A DNA stretch of 64,000 nt from a bacterium 210820-DFI.6.37 (GTDB lineage Bacteria > Bacillota > Clostridia > Peptostreptococcales > Anaerovoracaceae): contig JAJCKG010000002.1 in assembly GCA_020558355.1 (NCBI GenBank), positions 248,001 through 312,000 on the forward strand. The letters are read 5' to 3'. Below are positions 29,589-57,882 of the stretch, piece after piece. The notes beneath the pieces were generated by a model. It was not told the origin of the DNA and searched no databases. It saw nothing but the letters and a program-made list of their open reading frames with translations. Position numbers and translations under genes: made by a program. How positions within the stretch are numbered: position 1 is the stretch's first letter; each line of letters starts with the position of its first letter.

Positions 29589-30575
29589 ATGTACATTATC
29601 AAACATGAAAGCGGCAACCCATATTTTAACCTGGCGGTAGAAGAATACCTGCTGGACAATTTTGATGAAGATATTATTATGCTGTGGCGCAATGATAACG
29701 CTGTGGTAGTTGGAAAAAATCAGAACACCATCCAGGAGATCAACCAGAACTACGTAGACGAAAACGGAATTCGGGTTGTAAGGCGGCTGACCGGCGGCGG
29801 AGCGGTATTCCACGATATGGGAAATGTAAATTATACCATCATCCAGAAATACGATAATTCATTGTTTTCCAATTATGAATACTTTACGAAATCCGTACGG
29901 GATTTTCTTCGGACACTTGGCGTTGACGCGAGACTCAGCGGCAGAAATGACCTGATGATCGATGGAAAGAAATTTTCAGGCAACGCTCAGTGTGTCAGAA
30001 ACGGCAAGATGATGCATCACGGGACACTCATGTTCAGTTCACAAGTAAAAGATATATCGGGAGCCCTGACGCCGAATAAGCAAAAGATTGAAAGCAAAGG
30101 GGTTAAATCCGTAAAGAGCCACGTTACAAATATCTCATCTCATATGGAGAATAAAATAAGCGTGGACGAGTTTCTTGAGCGGCTTTATGAGCATTATCTT
30201 ACAAGCTCTGAAAACGTAGAGCCTTACCAGTTTACCCAAGCGGACATTGCCGCGATCCAAAAGCTTTCCGATGACAAATACGCTACGTGGGATTGGAACT
30301 ATGGTGAATCGCCCGCGTATTCCTGGTCTGGCAGCAAAAAATACGATTTTGGACTGGTGGATATCAGAATGGATATCAAAAATGGAACGATCTCGGATGT
30401 CAGAATATATGGAGACTTCTTTGGCATCAAGAACATACGGGATATTGAAACGCTGCTTACAGGCAGCCTTCACAGATACGATCAGGTGGCGGAAAAGCTG
30501 GATGCTGTGGAAATCGGGGATTACATAAGCGGAATGACAAAAGAGCAGCTGCTGGGATTACTTTTTGACCGTTAG
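29589..30575 (+). CDS. lplA: Lipoate-protein ligase A
   Basis: This 328-residue LplA has the lipoyl-AMP binding block RRLTGGGAVFHDMGN (about residues 57-71) and the Lys-containing KKFSGNAQ (about 132-139), plus the C-terminal accessory domain. It activates free lipoate with ATP and attaches it to lipoyl domains. ATG 29589 has GCGAGAGG just before it. The gene opens the catabolic island and sits 26 bases before the first LuxR-type regulator. The free-standing lipoyl protein at 42721 is its obvious client; no other lipoyl-domain gene is in the window. Confidence 0.93.
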   Translation: MYIIKHESGNPYFNLAVEEYLLDNFDEDIIMLWRNDNAVVVGKNQNTIQEINQNYVDENGIRVVRRLTGGGAVFHDMGNVNYTIIQKYDNSLFSNYEYFTKSVRDFLRTLGVDARLSGRNDLMIDGKKFSGNAQCVRNGKMMHHGTLMFSSQVKDISGALTPNKQKIESKGVKSVKSHVTNISSHMENKISVDEFLERLYEHYLTSSENVEPYQFTQADIAAIQKLSDDKYATWDWNYGESPAYSWSGSKKYDFGLVDIRMDIKNGTISDVRIYGDFFGIKNIRDIETLLTGSLHRYDQVAEKLDAVEIGDYISGMTKEQLLGLLFDR

Positions 30576-30601
30576 AGCTTACAGCCTGGGAGGGAGGAAA
30601 A

Positions 30602-31636
30602 ATGAAGATACACAGACCGGAAACGATGGTTGAATTTCTCAATTCGTTAAACTCATTACAAACATATGACAGCGAACTGTTTTCCTTGCAGGCGCTTGAG
30701 TATTTTGACCGGTATCTCGGTTTTGGACATTCGGCAATGGTCGTTATTGATAACGGATATGTGGTTTCTGACTACGGACATAACATCTCCAGGGATATGG
30801 AGGATGTATCCAATAATAAATATATTGCGTCATATATAACGGAGAACTGGGATAAGATCAAAAAAGAGGGAAAAGTCCTGTGCAGTACGGAAATCTTTCC
30901 ACAGGATAATGAATATATCGATTTTATTGAGGATAGGATTGGGATGCATTACGCGTTGATCCTTCCCTTCAAAGAAGTCTATCTGGCCTTATATCACACG
31001 GAAGAAGAAGGCGATTTTACAGAGGCCGAAAAGTCTCTGCTCAATGCTGTATACCAGTTTTTAAAGGGTTCCGACGCGTTGAGACACAAAGCCAGAAACG
31101 AACGGTATGTTTCCAACTTCAGAGATTCCGCGCTTGATGAAATGAAGGTGGGATTTCTGGTATTCGACAGCAATTTCAATCTGATCCACAACAATCGTTA
31201 CGCAATGCAGGCCATCAGCGGCATATTTGGAACAATAGTAAAGAATAAGCTTTTTGAAAAGCTTTGCGCGGCCTTTAACCTGAACGATGAAGTGATGAAA
31301 TCGGATTGTCAGGCGGTCTGTAAAGGGTATACCATGAAAGTCAGCCACTTTTACAAGGAAGAGGTGTATGGCGTAACAAGACACTTTGTCAATGTGACGA
31401 TAAAGAAAGAGCTTATTGAAAAAAATACGGCAGCAAGTACGGTTAGCTCTATAGCAGAGCTGACGAAGCGGGAGGAGGAAATTATCAAGTGCCTGTCCGC
31501 CGGGATGCAGTATCAGGAAGCGGCCGATTATTTGATGATCAGTATCAATACCTTTCGTACCCATATCAAAAATATTTATAAGAAAACCGGAGTCAACAGC
31601 CAGCATGAGCTGCTGAAGCAGTATTATTCGGACTAA
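30602..31636 (+). CDS. LuxR-type transcriptional regulator, paralog 1
   Basis: This 344-residue protein has a C-terminal LuxR helix-turn-helix (LTKREEEIIKCLSAGMQYQEAADYLMISINTF in essence, about residues 283-340). The roughly 270-residue N-terminal part is GAF/PAS-like in pattern but matches no family I can name. It is clearly paralogous to the regulator at 32673: same length, same KYLGF-type segment, EVYLALYHTEE versus EVYIVVYHTEE, and near-identical HTH. It is co-oriented with lplA and probably activates island genes on sensing a small molecule. GGGAGG lies before the ATG. Confidence 0.85.
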   Translation: MKIHRPETMVEFLNSLNSLQTYDSELFSLQALEYFDRYLGFGHSAMVVIDNGYVVSDYGHNISRDMEDVSNNKYIASYITENWDKIKKEGKVLCSTEIFPQDNEYIDFIEDRIGMHYALILPFKEVYLALYHTEEEGDFTEAEKSLLNAVYQFLKGSDALRHKARNERYVSNFRDSALDEMKVGFLVFDSNFNLIHNNRYAMQAISGIFGTIVKNKLFEKLCAAFNLNDEVMKSDCQAVCKGYTMKVSHFYKEEVYGVTRHFVNVTIKKELIEKNTAASTVSSIAELTKREEEIIKCLSAGMQYQEAADYLMISINTFRTHIKNIYKKTGVNSQHELLKQYYSD

Positions 31637-31675
31637 AAACTGTGGGCCGCGTTTTAAGAAAGCAAAGATACATAA

Positions 31676-31744
31676 AATCACCTGTTGGGATCGATTACCA
31701 TCTGAATTCCCGGCGGGTGATTTTTGGGTTAACCCAAAAATCAC
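31676..31744 (+). promoter_or_regulatory. Terminator overlapping a perfect 28-bp palindrome
   Basis: Arm 1 (AAATCACC) can pair with arm 2 (GGGTGATTT) to make a terminator after the LuxR gene. Arm 2 is also the left half of a perfect 28-bp palindrome at 31717-31744 (GTGATTTTTGGGTT and its complement). Two exclusive folds are possible. The palindrome might also be a regulator site ahead of the SDR gene. Confidence 0.65.
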
Positions 31745-31817: not shown

Positions 31818-32606
31818 ATGTTTGATATGAAAGGAAAAGTCGCGGTTGTAACAGGCGCTTCCAGCGGTCTTGGCGCTGACGCGGCAAGAGCGTATATCGA
31901 AGCGGGAGCCGCGGTAGCGCTTATCGCCAGAAGAAAAGAACGGCTGGAAAACCTGAAAGCAGAGCTTATCGCAAAGGGCGGAAGGGCGATGGCCGTGCAG
32001 TGTGATGTATCTGATGAGGAAAGCGTAAAGGCGGCGTGTGACAGTATTGCCGGGGAATATGGGAAGATCGATGTCCTTCTCAACGCCGCGGGAGTATCTC
32101 CGCTGGGAAGTGTGGAAACCCTCTCTGAGAAAGATTGGGACGCGGCTATGAATATCAATCTCAAAGGAACCTTCCTCATGAGCAAATACGTTATTCCGCA
32201 TATGAAGAAAAACCATTATGGAAAGATTGTAAACATAGCGTCCTTCAACGCCGGTAAGGCAGACAAGTTCGAACCCTTCTTCAGACACGCCTACAACGCG
32301 TCTAAGGCTGGGGTAAACGGTTTGACCGTAGCTATGGCGGCATCCTACGGGCAAAACGGCATTACGGTAAACAGCATAGGTCCGGGGCTCTTTGACACAG
32401 AGATGACACATGATGATCTGATTGAAAATGAAGGCTTTATGAGCTGGTTCAATAGCAGAAATCCTATGTGCCGTCCGGGAGGTAAAGGAGATCTTAACGG
32501 AACGATTCTCTATCTTTCCTCAGACGCGTCAAATTATGTGACCGGGCAGTTCATTCTGGTGGACGGCGGCGCGAGCATTGTGGATATTGCCGGACTGGAT
32601 ATGTAA
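31818..32606 (+). CDS. Short-chain dehydrogenase/reductase (SDR)
   Basis: This is a 262-residue classical SDR. It has cofactor motif TGASSGLG (residues 12-19), NAAG (about 89-92), catalytic Ser142 with Tyr159 and Lys163 (YNASK), and C-terminal GQFILVDGGAS. The segment between Ser and Tyr is longer than usual by about four residues. An Arg-Arg after the second strand (IARRKER) points to NADP or a mixed cofactor preference. It lies between two paralogous LuxR regulators, so it is probably one of their targets and acts on an alcohol or ketone of the island's pathway. GGCGGAGG precedes the ATG. Confidence 0.9.
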   Translation: MFDMKGKVAVVTGASSGLGADAARAYIEAGAAVALIARRKERLENLKAELIAKGGRAMAVQCDVSDEESVKAACDSIAGEYGKIDVLLNAAGVSPLGSVETLSEKDWDAAMNINLKGTFLMSKYVIPHMKKNHYGKIVNIASFNAGKADKFEPFFRHAYNASKAGVNGLTVAMAASYGQNGITVNSIGPGLFDTEMTHDDLIENEGFMSWFNSRNPMCRPGGKGDLNGTILYLSSDASNYVTGQFILVDGGASIVDIAGLDM

Positions 32607-32672
32607 TAGGAAGGGACTGTAATACAGATCCTGAGAAATATCCGATGCTGCAGATGTGAAGAGGGTGTGAAA

Positions 32673-33746
32673 ATGGTAAACAGTAGAAATGAAACCATCA
32701 AATTTATGTTGGAACTTATGAATCTGCAGTATTCCAATGGAATATATCATGCCAGACAGCTGTTGGAGTTGTTTGAAAAATATCTGGGATTCCAATATAC
32801 AGCAACAGGCGTATATGACAGCAATATTATTACATCATTAATGGGGCCGGAGATTATGTCAGAGTCAAAAAATGAAGCGATTCTGGACATTAATAAGACT
32901 TTTGTCCGTCCGTATATTATGGAACATCGGTCCGAGATCATGAATGATATAAAACCGGTATTCAGCACGGATATGGCGCGGCCAGAAAATTATGAGCACA
33001 GTAAGTATGTTACGGCAATGCGGGAAAAGCTGGGAATGTATTATTCCGCGTTCCTGGCGTTCAGAGAGGTTTATATTGTTGTTTATCATACAGAGGAAGA
33101 CGGAAACTTCAGCAATGAAGAAAAAAATACGCTGACAGACATATGCAGGTTTATGACCATACAGGACGCGGTTAAAGAGCGTATCAGAAATGATACGAAT
33201 TCTCTGTATCTCATAAATGAAGTGCTCGATGATTTTGAAATCGGGACGATCATATTTAAAGGTGATCATGAGGTCCTTTACTGCAATAAACGGGCAATAC
33301 AGTATATCAGCAGCCTTTGCGGAGAAGGTGTCGCCATGGAAGCCATGTTTGAGGCAATTTGCGGCATTGCGGGCTTTAAGGACACTATTAATACGATGAA
33401 CTATAGAGCCGTAAGCAGCGGATATGAATTCACAGCGGAGCATCTGTACAAGCAGGAGGAATACGGCGTCAGGCGTCATTATATACGAATGACGATGGTT
33501 CCCATGTCAAAGGAAATTCAAAGCTGTCAGGAGCTTAAAATAAAGGAGGCTTTTGAAAGACTGACAAGGCGGGAAATGGATGTGATTGAATGTCTGTACA
33601 GAGGTATGCAGTATCAGGACGCGGCAGACAGTATGGTGATCAGCATAAACACATTCAGAACACACATCCGGAACATATACAAAAAGCTTGGCATAAATAA
33701 ACAAGCGGATATTCTGCGGTATTACGGAGAATTTCGCAAACAATAG
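32673..33746 (+). CDS. LuxR-type transcriptional regulator, paralog 2
   Basis: This 357-residue paralog of the regulator at 30602 has a C-terminal LuxR HTH (LTRREMDVIECLYRGMQYQD, then ISINTFRTHIRNIYKK) and an N-terminal sensing region of the same layout. Sequence identity is highest in the HTH and moderate in the N-terminal part, so the two likely bind similar DNA but respond to different signals. GAGGGTG lies about eight bases before ATG 32673; a GTG two codons earlier is possible. A terminator follows. Confidence 0.85.
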   Translation: MVNSRNETIKFMLELMNLQYSNGIYHARQLLELFEKYLGFQYTATGVYDSNIITSLMGPEIMSESKNEAILDINKTFVRPYIMEHRSEIMNDIKPVFSTDMARPENYEHSKYVTAMREKLGMYYSAFLAFREVYIVVYHTEEDGNFSNEEKNTLTDICRFMTIQDAVKERIRNDTNSLYLINEVLDDFEIGTIIFKGDHEVLYCNKRAIQYISSLCGEGVAMEAMFEAICGIAGFKDTINTMNYRAVSSGYEFTAEHLYKQEEYGVRRHYIRMTMVPMSKEIQSCQELKIKEAFERLTRREMDVIECLYRGMQYQDAADSMVISINTFRTHIRNIYKKLGINKQADILRYYGEFRKQ

Positions 33747-33875: not shown

Positions 33876-35267
33876 CTATAAATACATATCATTCAAACTT
33901 ACCAGCTTAACTTCTCCAGCCTCTGCTTTTTCAATCAACGCTTCTGTAAAGCCTCCTTTGGAGAAAATATAATAATGATATTTTTCTCCTAATCCGAATA
34001 CTTCCGCATAATTCTGAAGCAGCTGTAGTTCATCTATACCTATTTTTTCATTTTTATATTTGCATGAACCGATGATATATTCTTTACCTTCTACCGGTGT
34101 GCCGACAATATCTATCTGTATTTCTTTATGCGATTTCTTATCTGTTCCCCACCACTGCCCGATTTCTTTAATTACAAAATCCGAGTTATTTTCATAATGT
34201 AACAGATATTCTTTGCACATTTTCTCGAAAACCAATCCCATATAGTCAGGATAGTAGTTCTTTATTACCGCATCGTAGATAAGTTTAATTCTTCCTGAGT
34301 TTACAGATGACAGGTTTTTCGAAACGAACCTGTACCAGAATCTAAAGAAATTGTCTTCAATAACATAAATCGTTTTCTTTCCGGGTTTCTCTGTAATCGG
34401 TGTTTCCTTTCTCACGATTTCAAGATCAAGTAAAACTTTCAAATACTTGCCGCATGCTCCTGAATTAAGACCAACTTTAGTCGCAATCTCATTTGCTCTA
34501 GATGCGCCTGCTGCGATTGCTCTTATAATAGAATTATAAATAGCAGGTTCCCTAAGTTCCTGTTTCAGCAGGTTTTCAGGTTCTTCAAAGAGATAAGCCG
34601 AGGAGTCGAAAATATTTTCTATTATCGCCTCATCCACATCACTGTCCACATCCAGTTTATTAATATAGTGAGGTATTCCGCCCGTTATTCCATATACCAA
34701 AGCCTGCTCACTTGCGTTCAGCTGTGGGTTAAATACAGTAATCTCTTTATAGTTCATCGCCTGAATTTTATATTGCGCAGTCCTTCTTCCATACAAAGGG
34801 CTTTCATATCCAAGCACCTGATTTTCCATAAAGCTCATAGATGAACCGCATAAAATTAAATAAAGATTGCTGTCCTGCCATACATGATCAATAATATGCT
34901 GCAGTCTGGAAGATACAGACTCGTTAGCCCTGGCAAGATAAGGATACTCATCTATTACAAAGATAACCTGTTCTTTCTTTACAATATTCGTAATTTCATC
35001 GAAAGCATCCGCAAAGCTTGCGTAAATCGGTGCTATGGAATGTTCTGAGTCTTTATACATGTAAATCGCCTTTGACAATTCCTCTAAGTTATCCTGCGCC
35101 GTTCCTCTAATAGCTGAAAAATATATAGCTTTTTTGTCTTTGCAAAATTCTCTAATCAGTGAAGTTTTTCCCACTCGGCGTCTGCCATATATAACGACAC
35201 ATTCAAATCTGTTTTTGTTGTATCGCTTATTCATGCTTTTCAGTTCTTCATTTCTTCCAAAAAACAT
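33876..35267 (-). CDS. AAA ATPase with DUF234 (archaeal-type ATPase family)
   Basis: This 463-residue protein begins MFFGRNEEL and has Walker A GRRRVGKTSLI (about residues 29-39), Walker B VIFVIDEYPYLA (about 100-111) and sensor LCGSSMSFM. A winged-helix segment (about 250-310) and a C-terminal DUF234 nuclease-like domain (QIDIVGTPVEGKEYIIGSCKYKNEKIG) follow. These ATPases are common, often mobile-looking genes of unclear role, possibly defence or nuclease related. It is AT-rich, points against the island and is bounded by a terminator and hairpins, which suggests independent acquisition. Confidence 0.85.
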   Translation of the reverse strand: MFFGRNEELKSMNKRYNKNRFECVVIYGRRRVGKTSLIREFCKDKKAIYFSAIRGTAQDNLEELSKAIYMYKDSEHSIAPIYASFADAFDEITNIVKKEQVIFVIDEYPYLARANESVSSRLQHIIDHVWQDSNLYLILCGSSMSFMENQVLGYESPLYGRRTAQYKIQAMNYKEITVFNPQLNASEQALVYGITGGIPHYINKLDVDSDVDEAIIENIFDSSAYLFEEPENLLKQELREPAIYNSIIRAIAAGASRANEIATKVGLNSGACGKYLKVLLDLEIVRKETPITEKPGKKTIYVIEDNFFRFWYRFVSKNLSSVNSGRIKLIYDAVIKNYYPDYMGLVFEKMCKEYLLHYENNSDFVIKEIGQWWGTDKKSHKEIQIDIVGTPVEGKEYIIGSCKYKNEKIGIDELQLLQNYAEVFGLGEKYHYYIFSKGGFTEALIEKAEAGEVKLVSLNDMYL

Positions 35268-35613: not shown

Positions 35614-37605
35614 TTGAATTTGAATAATAATTATCCACATCTTTTCAGTCCGCTTAAAGTTGGAAAACTCACCTTCAGAAACCGTATTGTATCTACGCCG
35701 AACAATACCCTGACAGATTTACACGACAGAATAACCTTCTTTGAGAATAAGGCAAGAGGCGGCGCTGCTGTAGTAACCGTTGGAGAAACAGCGATTTCAA
35801 GTAAATATGTTACGGCAGACAAGGGCTGCGGATTTGTTCTTGATGGTCTGGATAAGGATCACCAGAGACTGGGGTCATTTGTACTGGCTATGAAAGCCTA
35901 TGGAGCGATTCCCAATATACAGCTGATCCATCACGGCCGGGAATATTGGAATCATGGCCTTCAAAAGCCTCCGTTCGTAGACTTTTATCCGCTAAAGCCT
36001 TCCGGATACATGCCTATCGGACCAACCGCGGGGGTAAACAAGGACGGTGTAGAAGTCATTGAAATGACCGAAGAGCTGATTGAGGAAACCATACAGGATT
36101 ACGCAAACGCCGCGCAGTTTTGTAAACAGGCCGGATTTGATATGATCCAGATCCATGGAGGACATGGATGGCTTCCGGCGCAATTTGCCTCATCACGAAC
36201 AAATCACCGTACTGACCGCTGGGGCGGCAGCCTGGAAAACCGGGCAAGATTTCCGCTGGAAGTTCTCAAGAGGATCCGTGAAAAATGCGGCAAGGATCTG
36301 GTTATTGAGTACAGGGTCAGTGGAGACGAATTAGTTGAAAACGGCATGAGAATCGATGAAACGGTTGCGTTTGTAAAGCTGATTGAGCCGTATATCGACA
36401 TTATCCATGTGTCGGCGGGAATTCATATGGAAATGTCAACAGAGAGAAGAATGTTTCCTGAGGGCCTCTATGAAAAGAGAGGGTGCAATGTGTATCTGGC
36501 GGCAGAGATCAAAAAACATGTGAATATTCCGGTTCTTGCTGTTGGAGGGATTAACACGCCGGAACTGGCAGAGCGGATTCTGGCAGAAGGAAAGGCGGAT
36601 CTGGTTGGAATGGGACGGGCTCTTATAATTGACCCGGAATTGCCCAATAAAGCCAGAGCGGGCCATCCTGAAGAAATTATACACTGTATGCGATGCTGTC
36701 ACTGTCTTGCGTCAACATCACCATGGGACAAGGCATACCAGCTCAGCTGTTCCGGAAATCCGGTTATTGGCAGGGACAGAATGGTAGCAAGGATACCTGA
36801 GCCCGAAGGGTCCAGAAAGGTTGTGGTTGTAGGCGGTGGCCCCGCGGGGCTGTATGCCGCGATGACCGCGGCCAAGAGGGGCCATGATGTCACCCTTTTT
36901 GAAAAGAGCCCTGAGCTTGGAGGCCTTATGAAATACGCTGACGCCGACGAGGCAAAGTATGAAGAAAAACTTTACAAGGACTGGCTGGTCAGAAAGACGA
37001 AGGAGCGCGTCAAGGATATCCGGCTCGGAACAGAGGCGACTGCGGAAATCGTCGAGCCGATGAAGGCGGATGTCATTATTGCGGCTGTAGGATCAAAACC
37101 GCTCATCCCTCCGATTCCTGGAGTTGACAGAGAAACAGCGCTGACGGTACATGATGTGTATTACAGCCCGGAAAAGATCGGTGATGACATCATCATCATC
37201 GGCGGAGGACAGGTAGGATGTGAAACTGCGATCCATCTTGGAAAAATGGGCAAAAAGGTTACACTTATCGAAATGACGCCGGTACTGTCTGACCCTTCAA
37301 AAAACTGGGTACAGCAGCTAAGTACAGAGGAAGAAGTTTATAAAACAAAGACCATAGACCCCAGACTTTCGACAAAATGTGTAAAGGTTCAGGGAAATAC
37401 AGTAATTGTTGAGAAGGATGGCAAGCAGGAAGAGCTTACAGGGGATACCGTTATAATCTGCGCGGGGCAGACACCCGTAACAGATGGCCTCGAAGAGCTC
37501 CGAAACTGTGCCGACCGGTTTGTAGTTGCAGGTGATTGCATAGAAGCGCAGACAATTGGTGAAGCGGTAAGAGATGGGTTCTTCAATGCAATGAATATTC
37601 TTTAA
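35614..37605 (+). CDS. Old-yellow-enzyme-type 2-enoate / 2,4-dienoyl-CoA reductase-like protein
   Basis: This 663-residue enzyme has an N-terminal FMN TIM barrel (about residues 5-345), a [4Fe-4S] cysteine cluster (CMRCCHC then C about 18 residues later), an FAD-binding domain (VVVVGGGPAGLYAA, about 405-418) and an NAD-binding domain (IIIIGGGQVGCETA). The layout is that of 2,4-dienoyl-CoA reductase, anaerobic enoate reductases and BaiCD/BaiH. It reduces an activated C=C bond with NAD(P)H. The start is TTG; 35614 and 35620 are both possible given AGGAG at 35605. An MFS gene follows after 29 bases. Confidence 0.92.
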   Translation: MNLNNNYPHLFSPLKVGKLTFRNRIVSTPNNTLTDLHDRITFFENKARGGAAVVTVGETAISSKYVTADKGCGFVLDGLDKDHQRLGSFVLAMKAYGAIPNIQLIHHGREYWNHGLQKPPFVDFYPLKPSGYMPIGPTAGVNKDGVEVIEMTEELIEETIQDYANAAQFCKQAGFDMIQIHGGHGWLPAQFASSRTNHRTDRWGGSLENRARFPLEVLKRIREKCGKDLVIEYRVSGDELVENGMRIDETVAFVKLIEPYIDIIHVSAGIHMEMSTERRMFPEGLYEKRGCNVYLAAEIKKHVNIPVLAVGGINTPELAERILAEGKADLVGMGRALIIDPELPNKARAGHPEEIIHCMRCCHCLASTSPWDKAYQLSCSGNPVIGRDRMVARIPEPEGSRKVVVVGGGPAGLYAAMTAAKRGHDVTLFEKSPELGGLMKYADADEAKYEEKLYKDWLVRKTKERVKDIRLGTEATAEIVEPMKADVIIAAVGSKPLIPPIPGVDRETALTVHDVYYSPEKIGDDIIIIGGGQVGCETAIHLGKMGKKVTLIEMTPVLSDPSKNWVQQLSTEEEVYKTKTIDPRLSTKCVKVQGNTVIVEKDGKQEELTGDTVIICAGQTPVTDGLEELRNCADRFVVAGDCIEAQTIGEAVRDGFFNAMNIL

Positions 37606-38921: not shown

Positions 38922-38953
38922 ACAGAGCAGATATCATTCTGCTCTGTTTTCCT
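38922..38953 (+). terminator. Intrinsic terminator after MFS gene
   Basis: A perfect 9-bp stem ACAGAGCAG/CTGCTCTGT with an 8-base loop runs into TTTT. It ends the reductase-transporter unit. Confidence 0.85.
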
Positions 38954-44972: not shown

Positions 44973-44998
44973 CCCGAACGGTTAATGTGAGGCAAGAT

Positions 44999-49683: not shown

Positions 49684-50688
49684 ATGGCAGGAAAAGAAGA
49701 TTATAAGAATGTATGGGTCTATGCGGAACAGAGACAAGGCGTACTGACACCTGTTGTTATCGAGCTTCTGGGTGAAGGTAAAAAACTCGCGGACGCCGCG
49801 GGCGTTGACCTCTGCGCGGTTCTGCTGGGGCATAATGTAAAAAATTTAGCTGAGGAACTGATTCAATACGGAGCGAAGACGGTCTATGTGGCGGATGACC
49901 CGCTTCTCGACAAGTATACAACGGATGCTTATTCAAAGGTTATTACACAGGCCATCGAATCCATCAAGCCGGAAATCGTTCTTTACGGAGCGACGCATAT
50001 CGGAAGAGATCTCGCACCGAGAATCGCGGCAAGATGCGCTACGGGTCTGACGGCTGACTGTACAAAGCTGGAAATCAACCCGGACGATAAAAAGCTGATG
50101 CAGACAAGACCGGCGTTCGGCGGGAATCTTATGGCAACCATCATCTGTCCAAACCACAGACCGCAGATGTCTACCGTAAGACCCGGCGTTATGGAAAAGG
50201 CGGAAAAGGATGAGACAGCCCGTGGGGAAATCGTGGAATTTGATTATACGCTGAAAGCGGATGATATTCGCACCGTTGTAATGGAAATCGTCAAGACGAA
50301 GAAGACCGTTTCCCTGACAGACGCGGATATTATCGTATCCGGAGGAAGAGGTCTGGGAGACCCGGAAGGCTTCAAGCTGATAAAAGAGCTCGCCGATACA
50401 ATGGGCGGTGTTGTGGGGTCATCCAGAGCCGCTGTTGACGCCGGATGGATCGATAAATCCCATCAGGTTGGACAGACCGGTACAACCGTAAAGCCGAAAA
50501 TCTACATAGCGTGCGGAATTTCAGGAGCGATCCAGCATCTGGCAGGCATGCAGACATCGGACACCATCATAGCCATCAACAAAAATCCGAGAGCGCCTAT
50601 CTTTGAGGTTGCTGACTACGGTCTGGTGGGAGACTTATACGATATCGTACCGATGCTGATTGAAGCTTTCAAGGCGCTGGAGCAGTAA
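49684..50688 (+). CDS. etfA: Electron transfer flavoprotein, alpha subunit
   Basis: This 334-residue EtfA has the C-terminal FAD-binding signature [45 protein letters not shown] (about residues 270-314) and [14 protein letters not shown] (about 220-233). It forms the heterodimer with EtfB. The start follows AGGAGGACAG. The next gene starts within five bases, so translation is likely coupled to the transporter. Confidence 0.95.
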
Positions 50689-50692
50689 GGGC

Positions 50693-51913
50693 ATGTCTGA
50701 GAGAAAGAATAACAGCAAAATCAAATGGCTGTATTTAATTCTGGGAGCCATAGCCCTGCTCTTTGGAGGGATCATATATTCCTGGTCCATTCTCAAATCG
50801 CCCCTTGCGGAAGCGTTTGGATGGAACGCGACACAGCTGGCGTTTAACTATACCCTGACCATCTGCCTTTTCGTTCTGGGAGGACTTTTTTCAGGTATGC
50901 TGTCAAAGAAGACAACGCCAAGGATCCGGCTTTTCTTAAGCGCCGCGCTGGTGTTTTTCGGGTTTTTCCTTTCCTCCCGGGTGGAGGCGGACTCCCTGTG
51001 GCTCCTGTACCTTGCGTATGGAGGAATGGCAGGGCTTGGAATCGGATTTTTGTACAATACCACGCTCTCTGTAGTAAGTGAGTGGTTCCCGGATAAAAGC
51101 GGCCTTTGCTCAGGAATTATGCTGACGTGCTTTGGGTTCAGCACCTTGATTTTCGGAGGTCTGGCGGGAAAACTGATGGCGATGCCGGACTTCGGATGGA
51201 GAACTACCTATTTCCTCCTTGGAACCGTTATGGCGGTGGTGGTTTTGATCCTGGGTCTTGTACTCAAAAGACCGGAAGAGCCGGTCCTTATGAAAAGCGA
51301 GAAAAAGAAGCTTTCAGCGGTAATTCCAGGGGCGGGAGAATTTACCGCGGCGGAAATGTTAAAACGGATTTCTTTCTGGAAAGTCGCCATCGCTTTCACG
51401 TTATTCGGCTCCATTGGCAACGTGGCAATAAGCTGCGCGAAGGATTTTGCCATAGAGGCGGGAGCGGGAGAAACCTTTGCGATAACCATGGCTGGGATGC
51501 TGTCTGTGTGCAATGGGATTGGAAGGATCTGCGCCGGGGCTGTGTATGATAGCCTGGCATTGAGGAAAACCCAGTATGTGGTCTGTTCCTTTGCCATAAT
51601 CGCCCCTCTTTGCGGAATTTTAGCAGTCATAACCGGCGCGTATCTTTTAGCCATGTCAGCGTTACTGCTCTGCGGGTTCAGCTACGGCCTTTGCCCCACA
51701 TCGACAGCCATCTACCCGAAGCTCTTCTATGGAGAGAAGAATTACGCGCTTAATTTTAGCATTATGAACCTTACCCTGATACCCGCGGCATTCATCGCGA
51801 CACTGGCAGGCGCGATCATTACAGGAACAGGCTCCTATCTGCCGGTATTCGCAATGCTGACCGCGTTTGGAGCAGCTGGCTCAATTATCCTTTTAAACAC
51901 AAGGAAAGCATAA
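50693..51913 (+). CDS. MFS transporter, oxalate/formate antiporter-like (island transporter 3)
   Basis: This 406-residue major facilitator starts MSERKNNSKIKWLYLILGAIALLFGGIIYSWSIL, typical of the OFA (oxalate:formate antiporter) family. It has GIGFLYNTTLSVVSEWFPDKSGLCSGIM (about residues 113-140). OFA members move small mono- and dicarboxylates. ATG 50693 lies just after the etfA stop, with AAGG upstream; an in-frame extension into etfA is not credible. It is from a different MFS branch than the other three transporters in the window. Confidence 0.88.
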   Translation: MSERKNNSKIKWLYLILGAIALLFGGIIYSWSILKSPLAEAFGWNATQLAFNYTLTICLFVLGGLFSGMLSKKTTPRIRLFLSAALVFFGFFLSSRVEADSLWLLYLAYGGMAGLGIGFLYNTTLSVVSEWFPDKSGLCSGIMLTCFGFSTLIFGGLAGKLMAMPDFGWRTTYFLLGTVMAVVVLILGLVLKRPEEPVLMKSEKKKLSAVIPGAGEFTAAEMLKRISFWKVAIAFTLFGSIGNVAISCAKDFAIEAGAGETFAITMAGMLSVCNGIGRICAGAVYDSLALRKTQYVVCSFAIIAPLCGILAVITGAYLLAMSALLLCGFSYGLCPTSTAIYPKLFYGEKNYALNFSIMNLTLIPAAFIATLAGAIITGTGSYLPVFAMLTAFGAAGSIILLNTRKA

Positions 51914-51938: not shown

Positions 51939-53504
51939 ATGAAAATCTATAAAGCAGAAGAATTCGCAAAGGAAATTAAAAATGATGACTTTATTGTAAC
52001 ATGTGGATTCATGGCTGCCGCGGCGCCTGAAGAATTGTATATGGCTCTTGAGAAACGTTTCCTCGAAACCGGAGAGCCAAGAAACCTGACCTTAATGGCA
52101 GGCGCTGGAATCGGAAATCCTTCCGGCGTTGCCGGTGACGGTTTTAACCGGTTTGCCCATGAAGGCATGATGAAAAGGATCATAGTCGGTCACTATGGTT
52201 CTAACAAAAAGCTGATGCGGATGATCGTTGACAACAAGGTAGAATCCTATAACTGGCCCCAGGGCGTTGTCCTTCATCTTCTGAGAAGCATATCCTGCGG
52301 TAAAAAGGGCGAGCTTACAAAGATCGGGCTGAAGACCAACGCGGACCCAAGAATTGCCGGCGGCAAGATGAATGATATTACAACCGATGACCTGGTAAAG
52401 CTGGTGGAGTTTGAGGGTGAGGAATACCTTTACTATCAGATTCCAAAGATCAATGTAGCGATTATCAGAGGCACGACCGCGGACACAGACGGGAATATTA
52501 CCTTTGAAGATGAAATGGCCTTATCCTTTGCCCGCTACGCGGCGCTGGCGGCAAAGAACAACGGAGGGAAAGTCTATGTTCAGGTAAAGCGGATTGTAGA
52601 AGCGGGAAGTCTTGACGCCTCACAGGTAATTATTTCAGGGAATTTTGTAGATGGAGTCATCCTGACAGAAGATCTGATTAACAATCACAGACAGACGCCA
52701 GGTGAATATTACAGCCCTGTATTTACAGGCAAATACAGGATATCAGTAGAAGCAATGAAAGCGCTGCCGCTCAATCAGAGAAAAATCATCGGCAGAAGAG
52801 CGGCGATGGAGCTTAAGAGAAATTCTCTTATAAATCTTGGACTTGGGATTCCGGAATCGGTCGCTTCCATCTGCGCTGAGGAAGGCCTGTCGGATCAGGT
52901 CGTAATGACGGTGGAGACAGGAGCCATTGGCGGAGTCCCTATGGGCGGCAATAATTTTGGCGCGACAGCCAACGCGTGGTGCATCAATGAAGAACCGTTT
53001 CAGTTTGATATATACGAAGGCGGACACCTGGGAACCACCTTCCTCGGCTTTGCGGAGGTTGATCCAAAAGGAAACATCAATGTAAGCAAGTTCGGAAGCA
53101 GGATTCCCGGCTGCGGCGGCTTTATCGATCTGTCGCAGGCCACAAAAAATGTGATGTTCTGCGGAACGCTTACAGCCGGAGGTCTGAAGGAAGAAGTCGT
53201 CGACGGCAAGTTGGTGATCAAAGAAGAGGGCAAGGCGAAAAAGTTTAAAAAGTCCATTGAGCAGATTTCCTTCAGCGGCGAGTACGCCTGTGACACGGAG
53301 CAGAACGTTCTTTTTATAACAGAACGGTGTGTATTCCGCTTGACAAGGGAAGGCCTTAAAATCATTGAGGTGGCGCCGGGGATCGATATACAAAAGGATA
53401 TCATCGATCAGATGGAATTCGAGCCTCTTGTGGCGGAAGATGTGGTGGAAATGGACTGCCGTTTATTCAGAGATGAAAAAATGGGTCTTGATGAAATTAT
53501 ATAA
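51939..53504 (+). CDS. Acetate/propionate-type CoA-transferase
   Basis: This 521-residue class I CoA transferase has the alpha and beta halves fused, as in propionate CoA-transferase. The first half shows AGAGIGNPSGVAGDGFNRFAHEGM; the second carries GLGIPESVAS and the catalytic Glu326 in VETGAIGG. It activates the pathway acid by taking CoA from acetyl-CoA or another acyl-CoA. It is followed 10 bases later by a crotonase. Donor and acceptor are not readable from sequence. Confidence 0.92.
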   Translation: MKIYKAEEFAKEIKNDDFIVTCGFMAAAAPEELYMALEKRFLETGEPRNLTLMAGAGIGNPSGVAGDGFNRFAHEGMMKRIIVGHYGSNKKLMRMIVDNKVESYNWPQGVVLHLLRSISCGKKGELTKIGLKTNADPRIAGGKMNDITTDDLVKLVEFEGEEYLYYQIPKINVAIIRGTTADTDGNITFEDEMALSFARYAALAAKNNGGKVYVQVKRIVEAGSLDASQVIISGNFVDGVILTEDLINNHRQTPGEYYSPVFTGKYRISVEAMKALPLNQRKIIGRRAAMELKRNSLINLGLGIPESVASICAEEGLSDQVVMTVETGAIGGVPMGGNNFGATANAWCINEEPFQFDIYEGGHLGTTFLGFAEVDPKGNINVSKFGSRIPGCGGFIDLSQATKNVMFCGTLTAGGLKEEVVDGKLVIKEEGKAKKFKKSIEQISFSGEYACDTEQNVLFITERCVFRLTREGLKIIEVAPGIDIQKDIIDQMEFEPLVAEDVVEMDCRLFRDEKMGLDEII

Positions 53505-53514: not shown

Positions 53515-54291
53515 ATGGCGGAAGATAAACTTGTTTTACTGGAAATAAACGATTTTATAGCGAAACTTTCCATCAACCGTCCCAAAGCGCTCAACGCGCT
53601 CAGTGGTGAGGTCAACAGGCAGCTGGACGCCTGTCTTGATGAACTGGCAAAGCGGGACGATGTACGATGCGTGGTGCTGTACAGCGAGAAGAACTTCGCG
53701 GCCGGAGCGGATATTAAAGTTATGCTTGAGTGTGATGTAGCGCGGGCCAGAGAATATTCAGCGTCCCCCATTATGCAAAAGCTGGAGAATCTGAAGACGC
53801 CTGTAATCGCCGCGATGGAAGGCTACGCGCTGGGCGGAGGTCTGGAGCTGGCCCTTGCCTGCGATATCCGGATCGCCGCGGAAAACGCGAAGATGGGCTT
53901 TCCCGAAACGACTCTGGGCGTGATTCCGGGGGCGGGAGGAACCATAAGGGCGCCGAGACTCATCGGCGAAGCCCTTGCCAAGGAACTGATTTTTACAGGA
54001 AAAGTCATCGATTCGCAAAAAGCCTTAGCTATCGGTCTTGTAAACCAGGTAGTTCCTGATGGCCAAGTCCTTGAAACAGCAATGAAAATGGCGGGAAAAA
54101 TTGCGCGGAACGCGCCGCTGGCCATAGAAAAAGCAAAAGGGACCATCCGGGAAGGGCAGGAGGCGGAGTCCTTTGAAAAAGGATACGCCCGGGAAGTAGA
54201 GGCGTTTGCTTCTCTTTTCGCGACAGAGGATCAAAAGGAAGGCATGCGTGCTTTTGTAGAGAAAAGAAAGCCGGTCTATAAAAAAAGGTAA
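53515..54291 (+). CDS. Enoyl-CoA hydratase (crotonase family)
   Basis: This 258-residue crotonase has both catalytic glutamates (GGGLELALACDIR and FPETTLGVIPGAGG) and the oxyanion-hole block KNFAAGADIK. It can therefore act as a true hydratase, adding water across the double bond made by the acyl-CoA dehydrogenase. AAGGAGG six bases upstream fixes ATG 53515. It is distinct from the 3-hydroxyacyl-CoA dehydrogenase gene at 60112, which could take its product. Confidence 0.93.
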   Translation: MAEDKLVLLEINDFIAKLSINRPKALNALSGEVNRQLDACLDELAKRDDVRCVVLYSEKNFAAGADIKVMLECDVARAREYSASPIMQKLENLKTPVIAAMEGYALGGGLELALACDIRIAAENAKMGFPETTLGVIPGAGGTIRAPRLIGEALAKELIFTGKVIDSQKALAIGLVNQVVPDGQVLETAMKMAGKIARNAPLAIEKAKGTIREGQEAESFEKGYAREVEAFASLFATEDQKEGMRAFVEKRKPVYKKR

Positions 54292-54292
54292 T

Positions 54293-55042
54293 ATGAAGGA
54301 AATCAAGTATTTAGATAACTGCGGTATTTTGATAGCGTCCGAGCAAACACTGTTGATCATTGACGGACTGCGTCATGAGAAAAACGCTTTCGGCGCGCAG
54401 TCAATCCGCGTTAGAGAATACATAGAAAAAAGGCTAAAACGTTTTGAAGGAAACTGTATCATGGCTTTTACCCATACGCATCTGGATCACTTTGACGATT
54501 CCGCAGTGTATAAGCTCATTAAAGATGATATGGTTGATAAGGCAATCATACCCCGTGACGATGAACTGGCTGCTCAATGTGTTGAAGAAGCGGCGGACAA
54601 TCCTAAAATCACCCTTCTGAAAGGAAGGACTGAAGGAACGGTTACATTTGTTATAAATGATATGACACTTCGTTTTTTTGAGACAAAGCATCTGAAGTTT
54701 GAGGGGTATGACCATGTTTTGAACTATTGTATCGAAATAACGGTCGGGCAGGAGCGATACCTTGTAGCTGGAGATACTGACCAGGAGCGTTTGAAAAAGA
54801 TTCTGGATCAGGAAAGACATAGGATAGACGGTATCTTTGTGACACCTGTTATCCTTGGCAAGCCTAAGTGGGCTGAATATCTGAAGAATGAATCTATCCG
54901 GCGTATTTTTATATATCATTTGCCGGCAGCTGAGGATGATCGATTTGGATACAGAGAGTTCGCGATCAGGCAGCAGAAGCGATATGGAAGGACGCTTCCA
55001 AATTTAAACCTGCTGCTGAATGAGATGGAGGTAATAAAATGA
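54293..55042 (+). CDS. UlaG-like metallo-beta-lactamase-fold hydrolase
   Basis: This 249-residue MBL-fold protein carries the THTHLDHFD metal motif (about residues 61-69), a later AGDTD (about 157-161) and ETKHLKFEGYDHVLNY. It resembles UlaG/YfnA-type hydrolases that open lactones or act on phosphates. It starts two bases after the crotonase stop and overlaps the next gene by four bases, so it is firmly part of this operon. Ring or lactone opening in the pathway is a guess. The canonical HxHxDH is complete. Confidence 0.83.
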   Translation: MKEIKYLDNCGILIASEQTLLIIDGLRHEKNAFGAQSIRVREYIEKRLKRFEGNCIMAFTHTHLDHFDDSAVYKLIKDDMVDKAIIPRDDELAAQCVEEAADNPKITLLKGRTEGTVTFVINDMTLRFFETKHLKFEGYDHVLNYCIEITVGQERYLVAGDTDQERLKKILDQERHRIDGIFVTPVILGKPKWAEYLKNESIRRIFIYHLPAAEDDRFGYREFAIRQQKRYGRTLPNLNLLLNEMEVIK

Positions 55043-57882
55043 AGTTAAAAAAAATGACGCTTAATATCAATGGCGCGGACAGAACATTCATATGTGATCC
55101 GGAAAAAGACACACTTGCGTCAGTGATCCGAAGACTGGGTCTTACAGGGACAAAAGTAGGCTGCGGAGTAGGTGTATGCGGCGCGTGCTCTGTTATTCTC
55201 AATGGAAAAGTGATTCGTTCCTGTACTAAGAAAATCAAGTCGGTAGAAGAATACAGCGAAGTAACAACCATTGAGGGAATCGGCGCGCCGAATTATCTGC
55301 ATCCTCTGCAGGTCGCGTTTATGCACCATGGGGCTGTCCAGTGCGGCTTTTGCTCTCCTGGATTTATCGTATCCTCCTATCAGCTTTTGAAAGAAAATCC
55401 AAACCCGAGAAGAGAGGATGTCAGAGACTGGTTTACGAAACACAGAAATCTGTGCAGATGTACTGGCTACAAGCAGATTATCGACGCGGTAATGGAAGCC
55501 GCGAAAGTCCTGCGAGGAGAATGCGGTGTGGAAGATATCATGGTTGAAAAACCGGAAGACGGCGATTACTACGGAAAGGCACTGCCAAGGCCCGCGGCAT
55601 TGGCTAAAGTCTGCGGAGTCGCGGATTACGGCGACGATGTGGAGCTGCATATGCCAGCGGAAACCCTGCATGTAGTAATGGTGGAACCTAAGCTTACCCA
55701 TCACGCTAAAATTCTCAGCATCAATACGGAAGAAGCTGAAAAGATGGAAGGCGTATATAAAGTTATAACACATAAAGACATCAAAGGCTCCAACAGGCTT
55801 AATATGTTTACCTTCCTGCCATGGAGTGAAGCAAGCGCTCCCAGCCATGTTCTTCTGGCAGAAGATAAGATCTGCAACTATGGAGATATAATCGCCCTTG
55901 TCGCGGCAGACACAAAGGAACACGCGCAGGCGGCAGCTGAAAAGGTAACTATGGAATATGAAGAGCTGCCGGCTTATCTTAACTTTATTGAAGCCGCTGA
56001 CCCTGACGCGATGAGGATTCATGAAGATCATCCGAACGTATGGTCTAGGCATCCGATGATTAAGGGAGCGGGCCATGATACAGGGGAAGTCTTTGATGAG
56101 GCGGATTATGTTGTGGAAGGAAGCTTTTACTCCCAAAGAGAGCCTCACATGCCAATCGAGGGAGATACCGTACAGGCCTACTGGGGTGATGACGGAATGC
56201 TTACTGTTCACTGTAAATCTCAGGCCATTTATAACAATATCGGCGACATTGCGGAAGCAACCGGCGTACCGGCGGAAAAAATCCGGCTTATCTGCAATCC
56301 TACCGGCGGATGCTTTGGATGGGGTATTGCGGCCGCGACTTACGCGATTGCGGCAATCGCCTGCATTGCGTGTGACAACAAACCAGTCGCGTTTTCCATG
56401 ACCTATCAGCAGTATATGGCGTTTTCCGGTAAGAGAGCTCCGTCTTATGCCAATACAAGACTGGCCTGTGACAAAGATGGAAAAATTATGGGCGTTGAAT
56501 TTGACGCGGGTATGGATCACGGCGCGTATGATGAACTGGGCGATGATGTAATCGGGCCTTATGCCAGATTTATGTTCTTCCCATATGATGTGCCTAATTG
56601 CAGAGGTATCGTAAGAGTGGCAACCACCAATCATTCCTACGGAACCGCGTATAGAGGCTATGGTTCACCGCAGGCGTATACAAGCTCCGAAGCGCTCATG
56701 GATATGATGGCGGAAAAAATCGGAATCAGCCCGTTTGAAATCAGGTGGAGAAATATTGCCAGACCGGGAGCCTCCAACATTACAGGAGCGCAATTCCCTA
56801 ACTATCCGATGGAAGAAATGATGCTCAAACTGAAGCCGCTCTATGAAGAGGCAGTGAAAGAAGCCCAGGCGGAAAGTACGCCTGAGGTAAAAAGAGGCGT
56901 TGGTCTGGCATGGGGAGGATATAAAGTATCCATAGGCTTTGCGGACCAATGCGAGGTTTACCTTGAACTGAGAGAAGACGGAAAGTTTGTTAAATATGAT
57001 ACCTGGCAGGATGTAGGTCAGGGCGGAGATATCGGATCTTTGCAGAACACGCTGAAAGCGCTGCGGCCTCTGGGCGTTACAGAGGAAGATATCGTTCTGA
57101 TCCAAAATGACTCCAAGTACTGCCCTAACAGCGGTGTCAGCGCCGCGTCCAGATCTCATTATATGAATGGAAAAGCTACAGCAAGAGCTGCCGAAGCGCT
57201 GATGAACGCCATGAGAAAAGAAGACGGAACATACAGAACGTATGAAGAGATGGTAGCGGAAGGTATCGAAACGAAGTATTCCGGCATGTGGGCCAATAAG
57301 GAAGACGCGAGTATCACAGACCTTGATCCGAATACCGGACAGGGAAACGCGTCTCCTGAATACAGCTACAACCTGTTTATGGCAGAAGTAGCGGTAGACA
57401 TGGCAACAGGAAAAACAACGGTGATCGGAATGACCTGTATCGATGATGTCGGCGCCATTGGAGATATGGAAGCGCTCAACGGACAGGCCTTTGGCGGTAT
57501 GTCCCACGCCATTGGATTTGCGCTGCAGGAAAATTATGAGGATGTTACAAAGCACACGGATCCGTTAAGAGGCGGAGTACCTACCGCAAACGATATTCCT
57601 CTTAAATTTGAAGTGATCCATCACTGCACAATGAGAGAGACAAATCCGTTTGGCTCCTCTGGCGCGTCAGAAGGGTATCAGTCCGCGTCTCATATGGCCG
57701 TAATCAACGCGATTAATGACGCTACAGGCGTAAGAATCTACGAATTGCCGGCGACACCTGAAAAAGTCAAAGCGGGAATCGATACTCTCGCGGCAGGCGG
57801 AACAATAGAGCCGCCAAAGAAATACTTCCTGGGTAAGGACTTTGAAGATGAGCTGAGCTATATAAAAAATAATCCGGCATAA
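55039..57882 (+). CDS. MOP-type molybdenum aldehyde oxidoreductase
   Basis: This 947-residue xanthine oxidase-family enzyme aligns along its length with Desulfovibrio aldehyde oxidoreductase (MOP). It has a plant-type [2Fe-2S] cluster (CGVGVCGAC then C), a second cluster (CGFC and CRCTGY) and two molybdopterin domains from about residue 185. Key blocks are AYRGYGSPQ, DVGQGGDIG and the active-site Glu in FGSSGASEG. Like MOP it has no FAD domain, so electrons should leave via flavodoxin or ferredoxin. It probably oxidises an aldehyde or hydroxylates a heterocycle. The ATG overlaps the previous stop. Confidence 0.92.
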   Translation: MKLKKMTLNINGADRTFICDPEKDTLASVIRRLGLTGTKVGCGVGVCGACSVILNGKVIRSCTKKIKSVEEYSEVTTIEGIGAPNYLHPLQVAFMHHGAVQCGFCSPGFIVSSYQLLKENPNPRREDVRDWFTKHRNLCRCTGYKQIIDAVMEAAKVLRGECGVEDIMVEKPEDGDYYGKALPRPAALAKVCGVADYGDDVELHMPAETLHVVMVEPKLTHHAKILSINTEEAEKMEGVYKVITHKDIKGSNRLNMFTFLPWSEASAPSHVLLAEDKICNYGDIIALVAADTKEHAQAAAEKVTMEYEELPAYLNFIEAADPDAMRIHEDHPNVWSRHPMIKGAGHDTGEVFDEADYVVEGSFYSQREPHMPIEGDTVQAYWGDDGMLTVHCKSQAIYNNIGDIAEATGVPAEKIRLICNPTGGCFGWGIAAATYAIAAIACIACDNKPVAFSMTYQQYMAFSGKRAPSYANTRLACDKDGKIMGVEFDAGMDHGAYDELGDDVIGPYARFMFFPYDVPNCRGIVRVATTNHSYGTAYRGYGSPQAYTSSEALMDMMAEKIGISPFEIRWRNIARPGASNITGAQFPNYPMEEMMLKLKPLYEEAVKEAQAESTPEVKRGVGLAWGGYKVSIGFADQCEVYLELREDGKFVKYDTWQDVGQGGDIGSLQNTLKALRPLGVTEEDIVLIQNDSKYCPNSGVSAASRSHYMNGKATARAAEALMNAMRKEDGTYRTYEEMVAEGIETKYSGMWANKEDASITDLDPNTGQGNASPEYSYNLFMAEVAVDMATGKTTVIGMTCIDDVGAIGDMEALNGQAFGGMSHAIGFALQENYEDVTKHTDPLRGGVPTANDIPLKFEVIHHCTMRETNPFGSSGASEGYQSASHMAVINAINDATGVRIYELPATPEKVKAGIDTLAAGGTIEPPKKYFLGKDFEDELSYIKNNPA

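What the first reader, a model, noticed from the sequence alone, without database searches (positions are those of the whole stretch)
29589..57882. A three-module catabolic island built around a lipoyl complex, with unknown substrate
Each module has its own MFS transporter: enoate reductase; SDR-Ptb-Buk-E1/E2/E3; and acyl-CoA dehydrogenase-Etf-CoA transferase-hydratase-UlaG-like hydrolase-MOP. Lipoate ligase and two LuxR regulators sit at the front. If the lipoyl complex is acetoin-like it would yield an acyl-CoA plus an aldehyde, which MOP could oxidise to an acid. CoA transferase and beta-oxidation would then process the acid, and Ptb-Buk would yield ATP. I know of no described pathway with this exact set.
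Basis: inference. Interest (0 to 1): 0.72.

Follow-up and report, generated by a model that had tools for sequence, protein, structure and literature searches.

The report
Lipoyl complex with separate lipoyl protein
A bacterium of a Eubacteriaceae-related family carries a carbon-oxidising enzyme complex whose usual one-piece core protein is split, so that the small lipoic-acid 'swinging arm' is a separate protein; the same split recurs in related bacteria with varying partner genes, so it looks like a real design rather than an accident.

Summary
The listed genes are all present. The main point was missed: E2 of the lipoyl complex is two genes, a 225-aa catalytic core (42004-42681) and a 74-aa lipoyl domain (42721-42945), in the reverse of the usual domain order; no subunit-binding domain was found in the window. 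The split recurs: short E2 frames in 12 of 349 genomes of one family and in G227; a separate lipoyl ORF in 13 of 14 split loci, window included. E1 and E2 trees suggest at least two independent splits, one beside acoX-linked complexes. The full three-module set was not seen at the 13 other split loci; modules 2+3 recur together in reduced form (G534/G536), MOP with a split complex in G670 and G424, Ptb-Buk in G227. Best filed as a new variant: an acetoin-dehydrogenase-like system with a glycine-cleavage-H-like separate lipoyl carrier (free movement is inferred).

The parts
29544..30575 (+). lipoate-protein ligase LplA (likely lipoylates the separate lipoyl domain; inferred)
   Evidence: TIGR00545 425 bits, cut-off 280; Pfam LplA domains
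30602..31636 (+). LuxR-type regulator 1 (344 aa)
   Evidence: Pfam GerE 2e-10; no TM-like segment by hydropathy
31818..32606 (+). SDR oxidoreductase 1
   Evidence: Pfam adh_short
32667..33746 (+). LuxR-type regulator 2 (359 aa)
   Evidence: Pfam GerE 2e-11
33876..35267 (-). ATPase_2/DUF234 protein, probably unrelated
   Evidence: Pfam
35614..37605 (+). module 1: enoate-reductase-like flavoprotein (BaiCD/OYE family)
   Evidence: NF041087 403 bits, below cut-off 825
37635..38867 (+). module 1: MFS transporter
   Evidence: Pfam MFS_1
38922..38947 (+). terminator-like hairpin between modules 1 and 2
   Evidence: such hits not enriched over shuffles
39162..39953 (+). module 2: SDR oxidoreductase 2
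   Evidence: Pfam; among the best NCBIfam hits are hydroxybutyrate, glucose and 2,3-butanediol/acetoin dehydrogenase models, the 25 shown all below cut-off
39979..40914 (+). module 2: phosphotransbutyrylase (Ptb)
   Evidence: TIGR02706 308 bits, below cut-off 410.5
40886..41962 (+). module 2: butyrate kinase (Buk)
   Evidence: TIGR02707 447 bits, cut-off 289
42004..42681 (+). split E2: stand-alone acyltransferase catalytic core, 225 aa, no lipoyl domain, no PSBD
   Evidence: Pfam 2-oxoacid_dh only; H199-xxx-D203-G204 invariant in 13 rows; predicted E2-core fold, TMq 0.77-0.83 in the 50 rows shown
42721..42945 (+). split E2: separate lipoyl domain, 74 aa, own start and Shine-Dalgarno-like sequence
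   Evidence: Pfam Biotin_lipoyl 3e-17; sequence
42964..43971 (+). E1 alpha (thiamine diphosphate)
   Evidence: Pfam E1_dh; trees
43971..44972 (+). E1 beta
   Evidence: Pfam Transket_pyr and Transketolase_C
44987..46369 (+). E3 dihydrolipoyl dehydrogenase, no lipoyl domain
   Evidence: TIGR01350 551 bits, cut-off 409; no lipoyl hit
46428..47624 (+). module 2: MFS transporter
47738..48871 (+). module 3: acyl-CoA dehydrogenase, acryloyl-CoA-reductase-like
   Evidence: NF042972 469 bits, below cut-off 640
48884..49672 (+). module 3: EtfB
   Evidence: NF040731 478 bits, cut-off 445
49684..50688 (+). module 3: EtfA
   Evidence: NF042970 456 bits, below cut-off 600
50660..51913 (+). module 3: MFS transporter
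51939..53504 (+). module 3: CoA transferase (FadX-like)
   Evidence: NF052271 455 bits, below cut-off 750; Pfam CoA_trans
53515..54291 (+). module 3: enoyl-CoA hydratase (start set to ATG 53515)
   Evidence: Pfam ECH_1; start
54293..55042 (+). module 3: metallo-beta-lactamase-fold hydrolase of a rare subfamily
55039..57882 (+). module 3: molybdopterin aldehyde oxidoreductase (MOP)
   Evidence: NF045668 1162 bits, cut-off 1100

Best explanation
The centre of the island is a thiamine/lipoate enzyme system in which E2 is split into a stand-alone acyltransferase core and a separate lipoyl carrier protein, without a subunit-binding domain. SDR2 oxidises a secondary alcohol (diol or hydroxy compound) to an alpha-ketol or diketone. 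E1 cleaves it, placing the acyl half on the lipoyl protein and releasing an aldehyde. The carrier visits the E2 core (acyl to CoA) and E3 (re-oxidation, NADH). Ptb-Buk turns the acyl-CoA into acid plus ATP. MOP oxidises the aldehyde to an acid, which CoA transferase, acyl-CoA dehydrogenase/Etf and hydratase handle further. LplA loads lipoate. Shown from sequence: gene identities, the split, no PSBD found, recurrence in related genomes, catalytic His and Asp-Gly kept. Inferred: that the carrier moves freely, ketol cleavage, the order of steps, that modules 2 and 3 form one pathway. Module 1 is probably a separate unit. The architecture alone I hold at about 0.9; the stated confidence is for the whole pathway.
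For: Split E2 and separate lipoyl ORF. 12 short homologues, P0003-P0014, 225-228 aa, besides the query's own entry. Short E2 frames in 12 of 349 family genomes and in G227. Separate lipoyl ORF in 13 of 14 split loci (the exception, G399:C17, lies at a contig end; G624's is a 52-aa piece at a contig start). No lipoyl hit inside the E2 frame at 14 of 14 split places, against 18 of 19 full-length family rows with one. No PSBD at E below 0.04 in 14 of 14 split loci. E1a loop of the shorter form and E1 outside the PDH/BKD references. Second split lineage sister to six acoX-linked full-length complexes. NAD-kinase-family protein, which I take for AcoX, beside the split complex of G001:C29. Within 10 kb: Zn-ADH 8 of 14 split vs 2 of 20 full-length loci (Fisher p 0.006), CoA transferase 6 of 14 vs 2 of 20 (p 0.04), MOP, AOR or Fe-ADH 4 of 14 vs 0 of 20. 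Ptb-Buk in G227. SDR-lip-E2c-E1, Zn-ADH, CoA transferase, ACD, EtfBA, E3 in G534/G536.
Against: Reference proteins came partly from the split loci, so counts lean upward; 21 gene groups were tested without correction; loci are not independent (G534 and G536 nearly identical). AcoX is commoner at full-length loci (6 of 20 vs 1 of 14), SDR shows no significant excess (8 of 14 vs 7 of 20), the MBL hydrolase none (1 of 14 vs 2 of 20). Without an outgroup the E1 tree cannot say whether the window clade is sister to acetoin or to 2-oxo-acid enzymes, and plain identity does not decide (E1a 22-28% to seven PDH/BKD references, 27-28% to two aco references). Ptb-Buk beside E1/E2/E3 is a known 2-oxo-acid arrangement. 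No substrate evidence.
Confidence: 0.45

Rival explanations
1. The same split complex oxidises 2-oxo acids (for example branched-chain or aromatic ones), and Ptb-Buk makes ATP, as in the bkd operon of Enterococcus and Lactobacillus. SDR2 would be a hydroxy-acid dehydrogenase and MOP would be unrelated.
For: Ptb-Buk with BkdDABC is the described bkd arrangement (PMC3716772, passages seen). The E1a's only E1-type NCBIfam hits are PDH E1 alpha models, far below cut-off (196 vs 394 bits). One pdhA-annotated reference (Cupriavidus, L078) also has the shorter loop and lies on the aco side of the tree.
Against: Window E1 is outside the group of seven PDH/BKD references, all of which have the longer E1a loop. 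Aldehyde oxidoreductases recur near split complexes. Bacillota BKD references were scarce (Aerococcus only).
Confidence: 0.3
2. The three modules are separate units: module 2 is the oxidative, ATP-making branch; modules 1 and 3 are reductive electron sinks (enoate reductase; acryloyl-CoA-reductase-type dehydrogenase with Etf), each with its own transporter.
For: ACD and EtfA match acryloyl-CoA reductase models best, below cut-off. Each module has an MFS gene; gap and hairpin between modules 1 and 2. Module 1 is not found at other split loci; ACD/Etf at 3 of 14, window and the near-identical G534/G536.
Against: ACD-EtfBA-CoA transferase lie with a split complex in G534/G536; modules 2 and 3 are only 113 bases apart.
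Confidence: 0.35
3. The split is an assembly error or a decaying E2 gene.
For: The window is from an unnamed record with no genome held.
Against: In the window the lipoyl gene lies 3' of the core, the reverse of the order in full-length E2, with its own ribosome-binding-like sequence. The split recurs at 13 other loci; in G556 and G628 another gene lies in between. Catalytic residues are invariant in the 13 rows aligned.
Confidence: 0.02

Closest known systems
Acetoin dehydrogenase system (aco, with 2,3-butanediol dehydrogenase and acoX)
   Same: E1a/E1b/E2/E3 set beside an alcohol dehydrogenase (Enterococcus reference); E1a loop type; the second split lineage is sister to acoX-linked complexes
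   Different: E2 is one protein in the Enterococcus reference (lipoyl and core in one 401-aa frame); no Ptb-Buk, MOP or acyl-CoA module annotated in that reference stretch
bkd operon (ptb-buk-bkdDABC) of Enterococcus/Lactobacillus
   Same: Ptb-Buk with E1/E2/E3 genes (PMC3716772, passages)
   Different: Window E1 is not in the PDH/BKD reference group; E2 split; extra SDR and lipoyl gene
Glycine cleavage H protein and LbpA of sulfur oxidation
   Same: Single-lipoyl-domain protein as separate carrier; LplA-like ligase near LbpA genes (PMC6067878, abstract and passages)
   Different: Here the partners are a 2-oxo-acid-dehydrogenase-type E1 and an E2 core; no gcv or hdr genes among the window ORFs scanned
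Complex on a C. difficile plasmid with its lipoyl domain on E3
   Same: E2 without a lipoyl hit; LpdA with one. The Vescimonas complex has a lipoyl hit on both E2 and E3
   Different: Lipoyl domain is fused to E3, not a separate protein

Membership tests
2-oxo-acid/acetoin dehydrogenase-type lipoyl system | E1a, E1b, acyltransferase core, lipoyl domain and E3 all encoded together | tested here: met
2-oxo-acid/acetoin dehydrogenase-type lipoyl system | E2 = lipoyl domain(s) + PSBD + core in one chain (recalled definition) | tested here: not met
   core alone 225 aa, lipoyl separate, no PSBD found
Acetoin dehydrogenase | E1 groups with aco E1 | tested here: inconclusive
   outside the PDH/BKD group and outside the aco side; own clade; no outgroup
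Acetoin dehydrogenase | acoX and 2,3-butanediol dehydrogenase in the cluster | tested here: not met
   no match to the AcoX-type protein or Zn-ADH within 10 kb of the window's E2; an SDR instead. AcoX-type gene at relative G001:C29 only, 1 of 14 split loci
Acetoin dehydrogenase | cleaves acetoin to acetyl-CoA + acetaldehyde | not testable with these tools
   needs enzyme assay
Branched-chain 2-oxo-acid dehydrogenase (bkd) | ptb-buk next to complex genes | tested here: met
Branched-chain 2-oxo-acid dehydrogenase (bkd) | E1 groups with BKD E1 | tested here: not met
   few Bacillota references available, so a limited test
Glycine-cleavage-H/LbpA-type lipoyl carrier | single lipoyl domain as separate protein | tested here: met
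Glycine-cleavage-H/LbpA-type lipoyl carrier | gcv or hdr partner genes | tested here: not met
   none among the ORFs given to Pfam; not every ORF of the window was scanned
UlaG lactonase family | UlaG family match | tested here: inconclusive
   no NCBIfam hit at 1e-5; MBL fold in general

The most novel reading that the evidence does not exclude
A lipoyl enzyme system in which a small, untethered lipoyl protein shuttles acyl groups between E1, a bare E2 core and E3, as the H protein does in glycine cleavage, and which arose from acetoin-dehydrogenase-like complexes at least twice in one family of anaerobes; its parts (E1, E2 core, alcohol and aldehyde oxidoreductases) are shuffled to handle different ketols or oxo acids.
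Probability: 0.45. Interest if true: 0.7.

Novelty: new variant of a known kind. Interest (0 to 1): 0.55.

Why it matters
The tethered swinging arm and the subunit-binding domain are, in textbook accounts (recalled), what makes such complexes work as giant assemblies. A recurrent natural version without the tether would allow a direct test of whether tethering is needed, and gives a minimal set of parts. It also points to unassigned catabolic pathways in a family known mostly from genomes, where the variable neighbours (alcohol, aldehyde and CoA enzymes) hint at a range of related substrates.

Tried and rejected
Own-genome search impossible. Genome scan with the split-E2 alignment: 30 pattern matches, none confirmed; the E1a scan gave two weak loci, one of which (L002) opened the route to G001. 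Finding the substrate from the hydrolase failed: 2 homologues besides itself. Synteny in the nearest relatives failed beyond tsf. Plasmid records served only for labelled E1/E2 references; Paracoccus L079 had no annotation and was not used. Rfam gave nothing in 28000-60000. Frameshift/decay rejected (see rivals). AcoX as a mark of split loci rejected: 1 of 14 vs 6 of 20. The label AcoX is mine: Pfam shows only the NAD-kinase family, and PMC3543383 calls acoX typical of acetoin clusters (passage).

Rows left out: L062 (821-aa frame) from all trees; L042, L050-type extra rows were replaced by longer loci; G536, G553, G414, G508c152 and G734 left out of the tree to save time; G536 and G414 not in the E2 tree; G490 and G414 not in the linker set, which used 21 of 25 linkers with a PSBD-like motif, and its two positive controls (L142, L150) were in that set. 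G624:C35 (cut match, 276-aa frame) not counted. G490, used as a full-length control, has no lipoyl hit in its 403-aa frame. The 20 control loci were picked by hand from the full-length matches, not at random. E1 genes lay within the fetched stretch at 12 of 14 split loci.

Papers: searches for a separate lipoyl/E2 arrangement (open-licence library); listings seen, passages read only in PMC3543383 and PMC6067878 (and PMC3716772 for bkd). No description found, but the other listed papers were not opened, and searches returned nothing.
Full report
Observation. Added: a second SDR and a minus-strand DUF234 ATPase in the front part. The hydratase start is best placed at 53515, behind a ribosome-binding-like sequence. 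The 'UlaG-like' protein has an HxHxDH motif and a metallo-beta-lactamase fold (model pLDDT 76); only 2 other proteins match it at E 1e-20, though distant relatives exist.

The split E2. The gene taken for E2 encodes 225 residues and matches only the acyltransferase domain. A separate 74-aa ORF follows it and is a lipoyl domain (Pfam 3e-17). The order core-then-lipoyl is the reverse of the domain order in ordinary E2, and the lipoyl ORF has its own AAGGAGG-like sequence, so a frameshift in a normal E2 does not explain it. E3 has no lipoyl hit. A PSBD model built from 21 of 25 full-length E2 linkers finds nothing in the window at E 0.1; at the 13 other split loci it finds only fragments on 46-51-aa frames in three (best E 0.048). 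It hits two full-length control loci at 1.5e-25 and 4.4e-36, but both were in the model's own set. The core keeps the His and Asp-Gly of the active site in the 13 rows aligned, window included, and is predicted to have the E2-core fold (pLDDT 85; TMq 0.77-0.83 over the 50 rows shown, with rmsd from about 2 to 11 A).

Recurrence. A search of 5.8 billion proteins gave the query's own entry plus 12 short homologues (39-70% identity), then mostly longer E2s at about 30%. No relative was confirmed in the GTDB r220 genome scan. G001's record is titled Eubacteriaceae bacterium. In its family 349 genomes were searched: 56 had a match at E 1e-22, and 12 of these had a frame under 280 aa (G670, G624, G409 twice, G534, G536, G001, G556, G424, G628, G399:C17, G727, G508) (counted by hand). 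With G227 and the window that gives 14 loci; a separate lipoyl ORF was found at 13, the exception lying at a contig end (six of the loci supplied sequences for the lipoyl model). In G556 and G628 a B12-binding-domain gene lies between lipoyl and core genes. G534 and G536 have practically identical E1 and count as one case.

Origin. By ribosomal protein S2 the window belongs with G448 (97%) and G508 (96%) of this family, but the region beyond tsf is not syntenic there. G508 has a different split complex with LplA, SDR and LuxR near. In concatenated E1a+E1b trees (47 rows, 644 columns) the window groups with G001:C35 (a lipoyl-E1a-E1b locus without E2 core), G409, G624, G001:C29, G227, G534/G536 and G727 (SH-aLRT/bootstrap 96.6/99), while G508, G556, G628 and G670 form a second group (93/94) sister to six acoX-linked full-length complexes (99/98) (similar: 97.1/100 and 90.7/94). 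The E2-core tree places G508, G424, G628 and G556 beside a full-length acoX-linked E2 (97.1/100) and most others, including G670, with the window (75.4/94, weak); G399:C17 and G727 fall elsewhere. So at least two splits are the simplest reading, and G670 seems to combine an E1 of one group with an E2 core of the other. Many deep branches are weak.

Substrate type. Seven PDH/BKD references form a group apart from the window and have the longer E1a loop; the window's loop (PHWFGQ) is of the shorter form seen on the aco side. Exceptions: G727 of the window's own group has another loop, and the pdhA-annotated Cupriavidus row has the shorter form. The tree has no outgroup, so it cannot place the window clade as sister to one or the other, and pairwise identity does not decide. 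Neighbours within 10 kb of E2: Zn-ADH 8 of 14 split vs 2 of 20 full-length loci (p 0.006), LuxR 6 of 14 vs 0 of 20 (p 0.002), CoA transferase 6 of 14 vs 2 of 20 (p 0.04), aldehyde enzymes (MOP, AOR, Fe-ADH) 4 of 14 vs 0 of 20; but SDR 8 of 14 vs 7 of 20, AcoX 1 of 14 vs 6 of 20, LplA 1 of 14 vs 6 of 20, MBL hydrolase 1 of 14 vs 2 of 20. The window's own MOP, CoA transferase, MBL hydrolase and LplA lie beyond the 10 kb limit and are not counted. The counts lean upward, because some queries came from split loci, and are uncorrected for 21 tests. The Zn-ADH of G227 is nearest to threonine/sorbitol-dehydrogenase-type structures. 4-hydroxybutyryl-CoA dehydratase (883 bits to 1u8v) is in G409, a 49% identical protein in G227 and an 81% identical one near a full-length complex in G399:C14, so substrates probably differ between loci.

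Conservation of the modules. G534/G536: ECH-SDR-lip-E2c-E1a-E1b, LuxR, Zn-ADH, CoA transferase, ACD, EtfB, EtfA, E3. G670: E1a-E1b-lip-E2c-E3-MFS-SDR-Zn-ADH-SSF-MOP and, further on, ECH. G424: lip-E2c-AOR-transporters-MBL hydrolase (24% to the window's)-MOP, no E1 in the stretch. G227: Ptb-Buk with the split complex and thiolase-ECH-3HCDH-ACD nearby. None of the 13 other loci showed all three modules in the stretch fetched.

Literature. LbpA and GcvH are described as single-lipoyl-domain proteins, and five lipoate-dependent complexes are called characterised in a 2018 paper (PMC6067878; abstract and passages). acoX is called typical of acetoin clusters (PMC3543383, passages). The ptb-buk-bkdDABC operon is described in PMC3716772 (passages). 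I found no description of the split-E2 arrangement in the open library (mostly listings seen); subscription papers were not searchable.

Verdict. The genes are real, the proposed chemistry is plausible but unproven, and the unusual feature is the split E2 with a separate lipoyl protein and no subunit-binding domain found: a recurrent variant of a known kind.

Noticed in passing
L081:2986-5176 (Thermus thermophilus plasmid pTF27b): acoA-annotated E1a and an E1b gene followed by an 82-aa separate lipoyl domain and TRAP transporter genes, with no E2-core hit in the 6.8 kb fetched: a possible further split case outside Bacillota.
   Followed up: partly
L070:6008-10937 (C. difficile plasmid): E2 without a lipoyl hit and a 581-aa-frame LpdA with an N-terminal lipoyl hit, near glycoside hydrolase genes and an MFS gene.
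   Followed up: partly
L053:2490-19223 (G409:C29): Two split complexes in tandem with 4-hydroxybutyryl-CoA dehydratase, two Zn-ADHs, an Fe-ADH and an acetyl-CoA hydrolase/transferase-family protein: a possible unassigned hydroxy-acid or diol pathway.
   Followed up: partly
L136:1620-8167 and L138:5352-8121: B12-binding-domain proteins interleaved with split-complex genes; in L136 also a hydantoinase-A-family protein.
   Followed up: no
L071:5780-14029 (Vescimonas fastidiosa plasmid): MBL hydrolase, E1a/E1b, E2, E3 and lipoate ligase with a TRAP transporter: another combination of MBL hydrolase and lipoyl complex.
   Followed up: no
window 48-10078: Core-type genes (DivIVA, pseudouridine synthase, NFACT, YicC, rpsB, tsf); similarity to the nearest relatives stops after tsf in the stretches compared.
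   Followed up: partly
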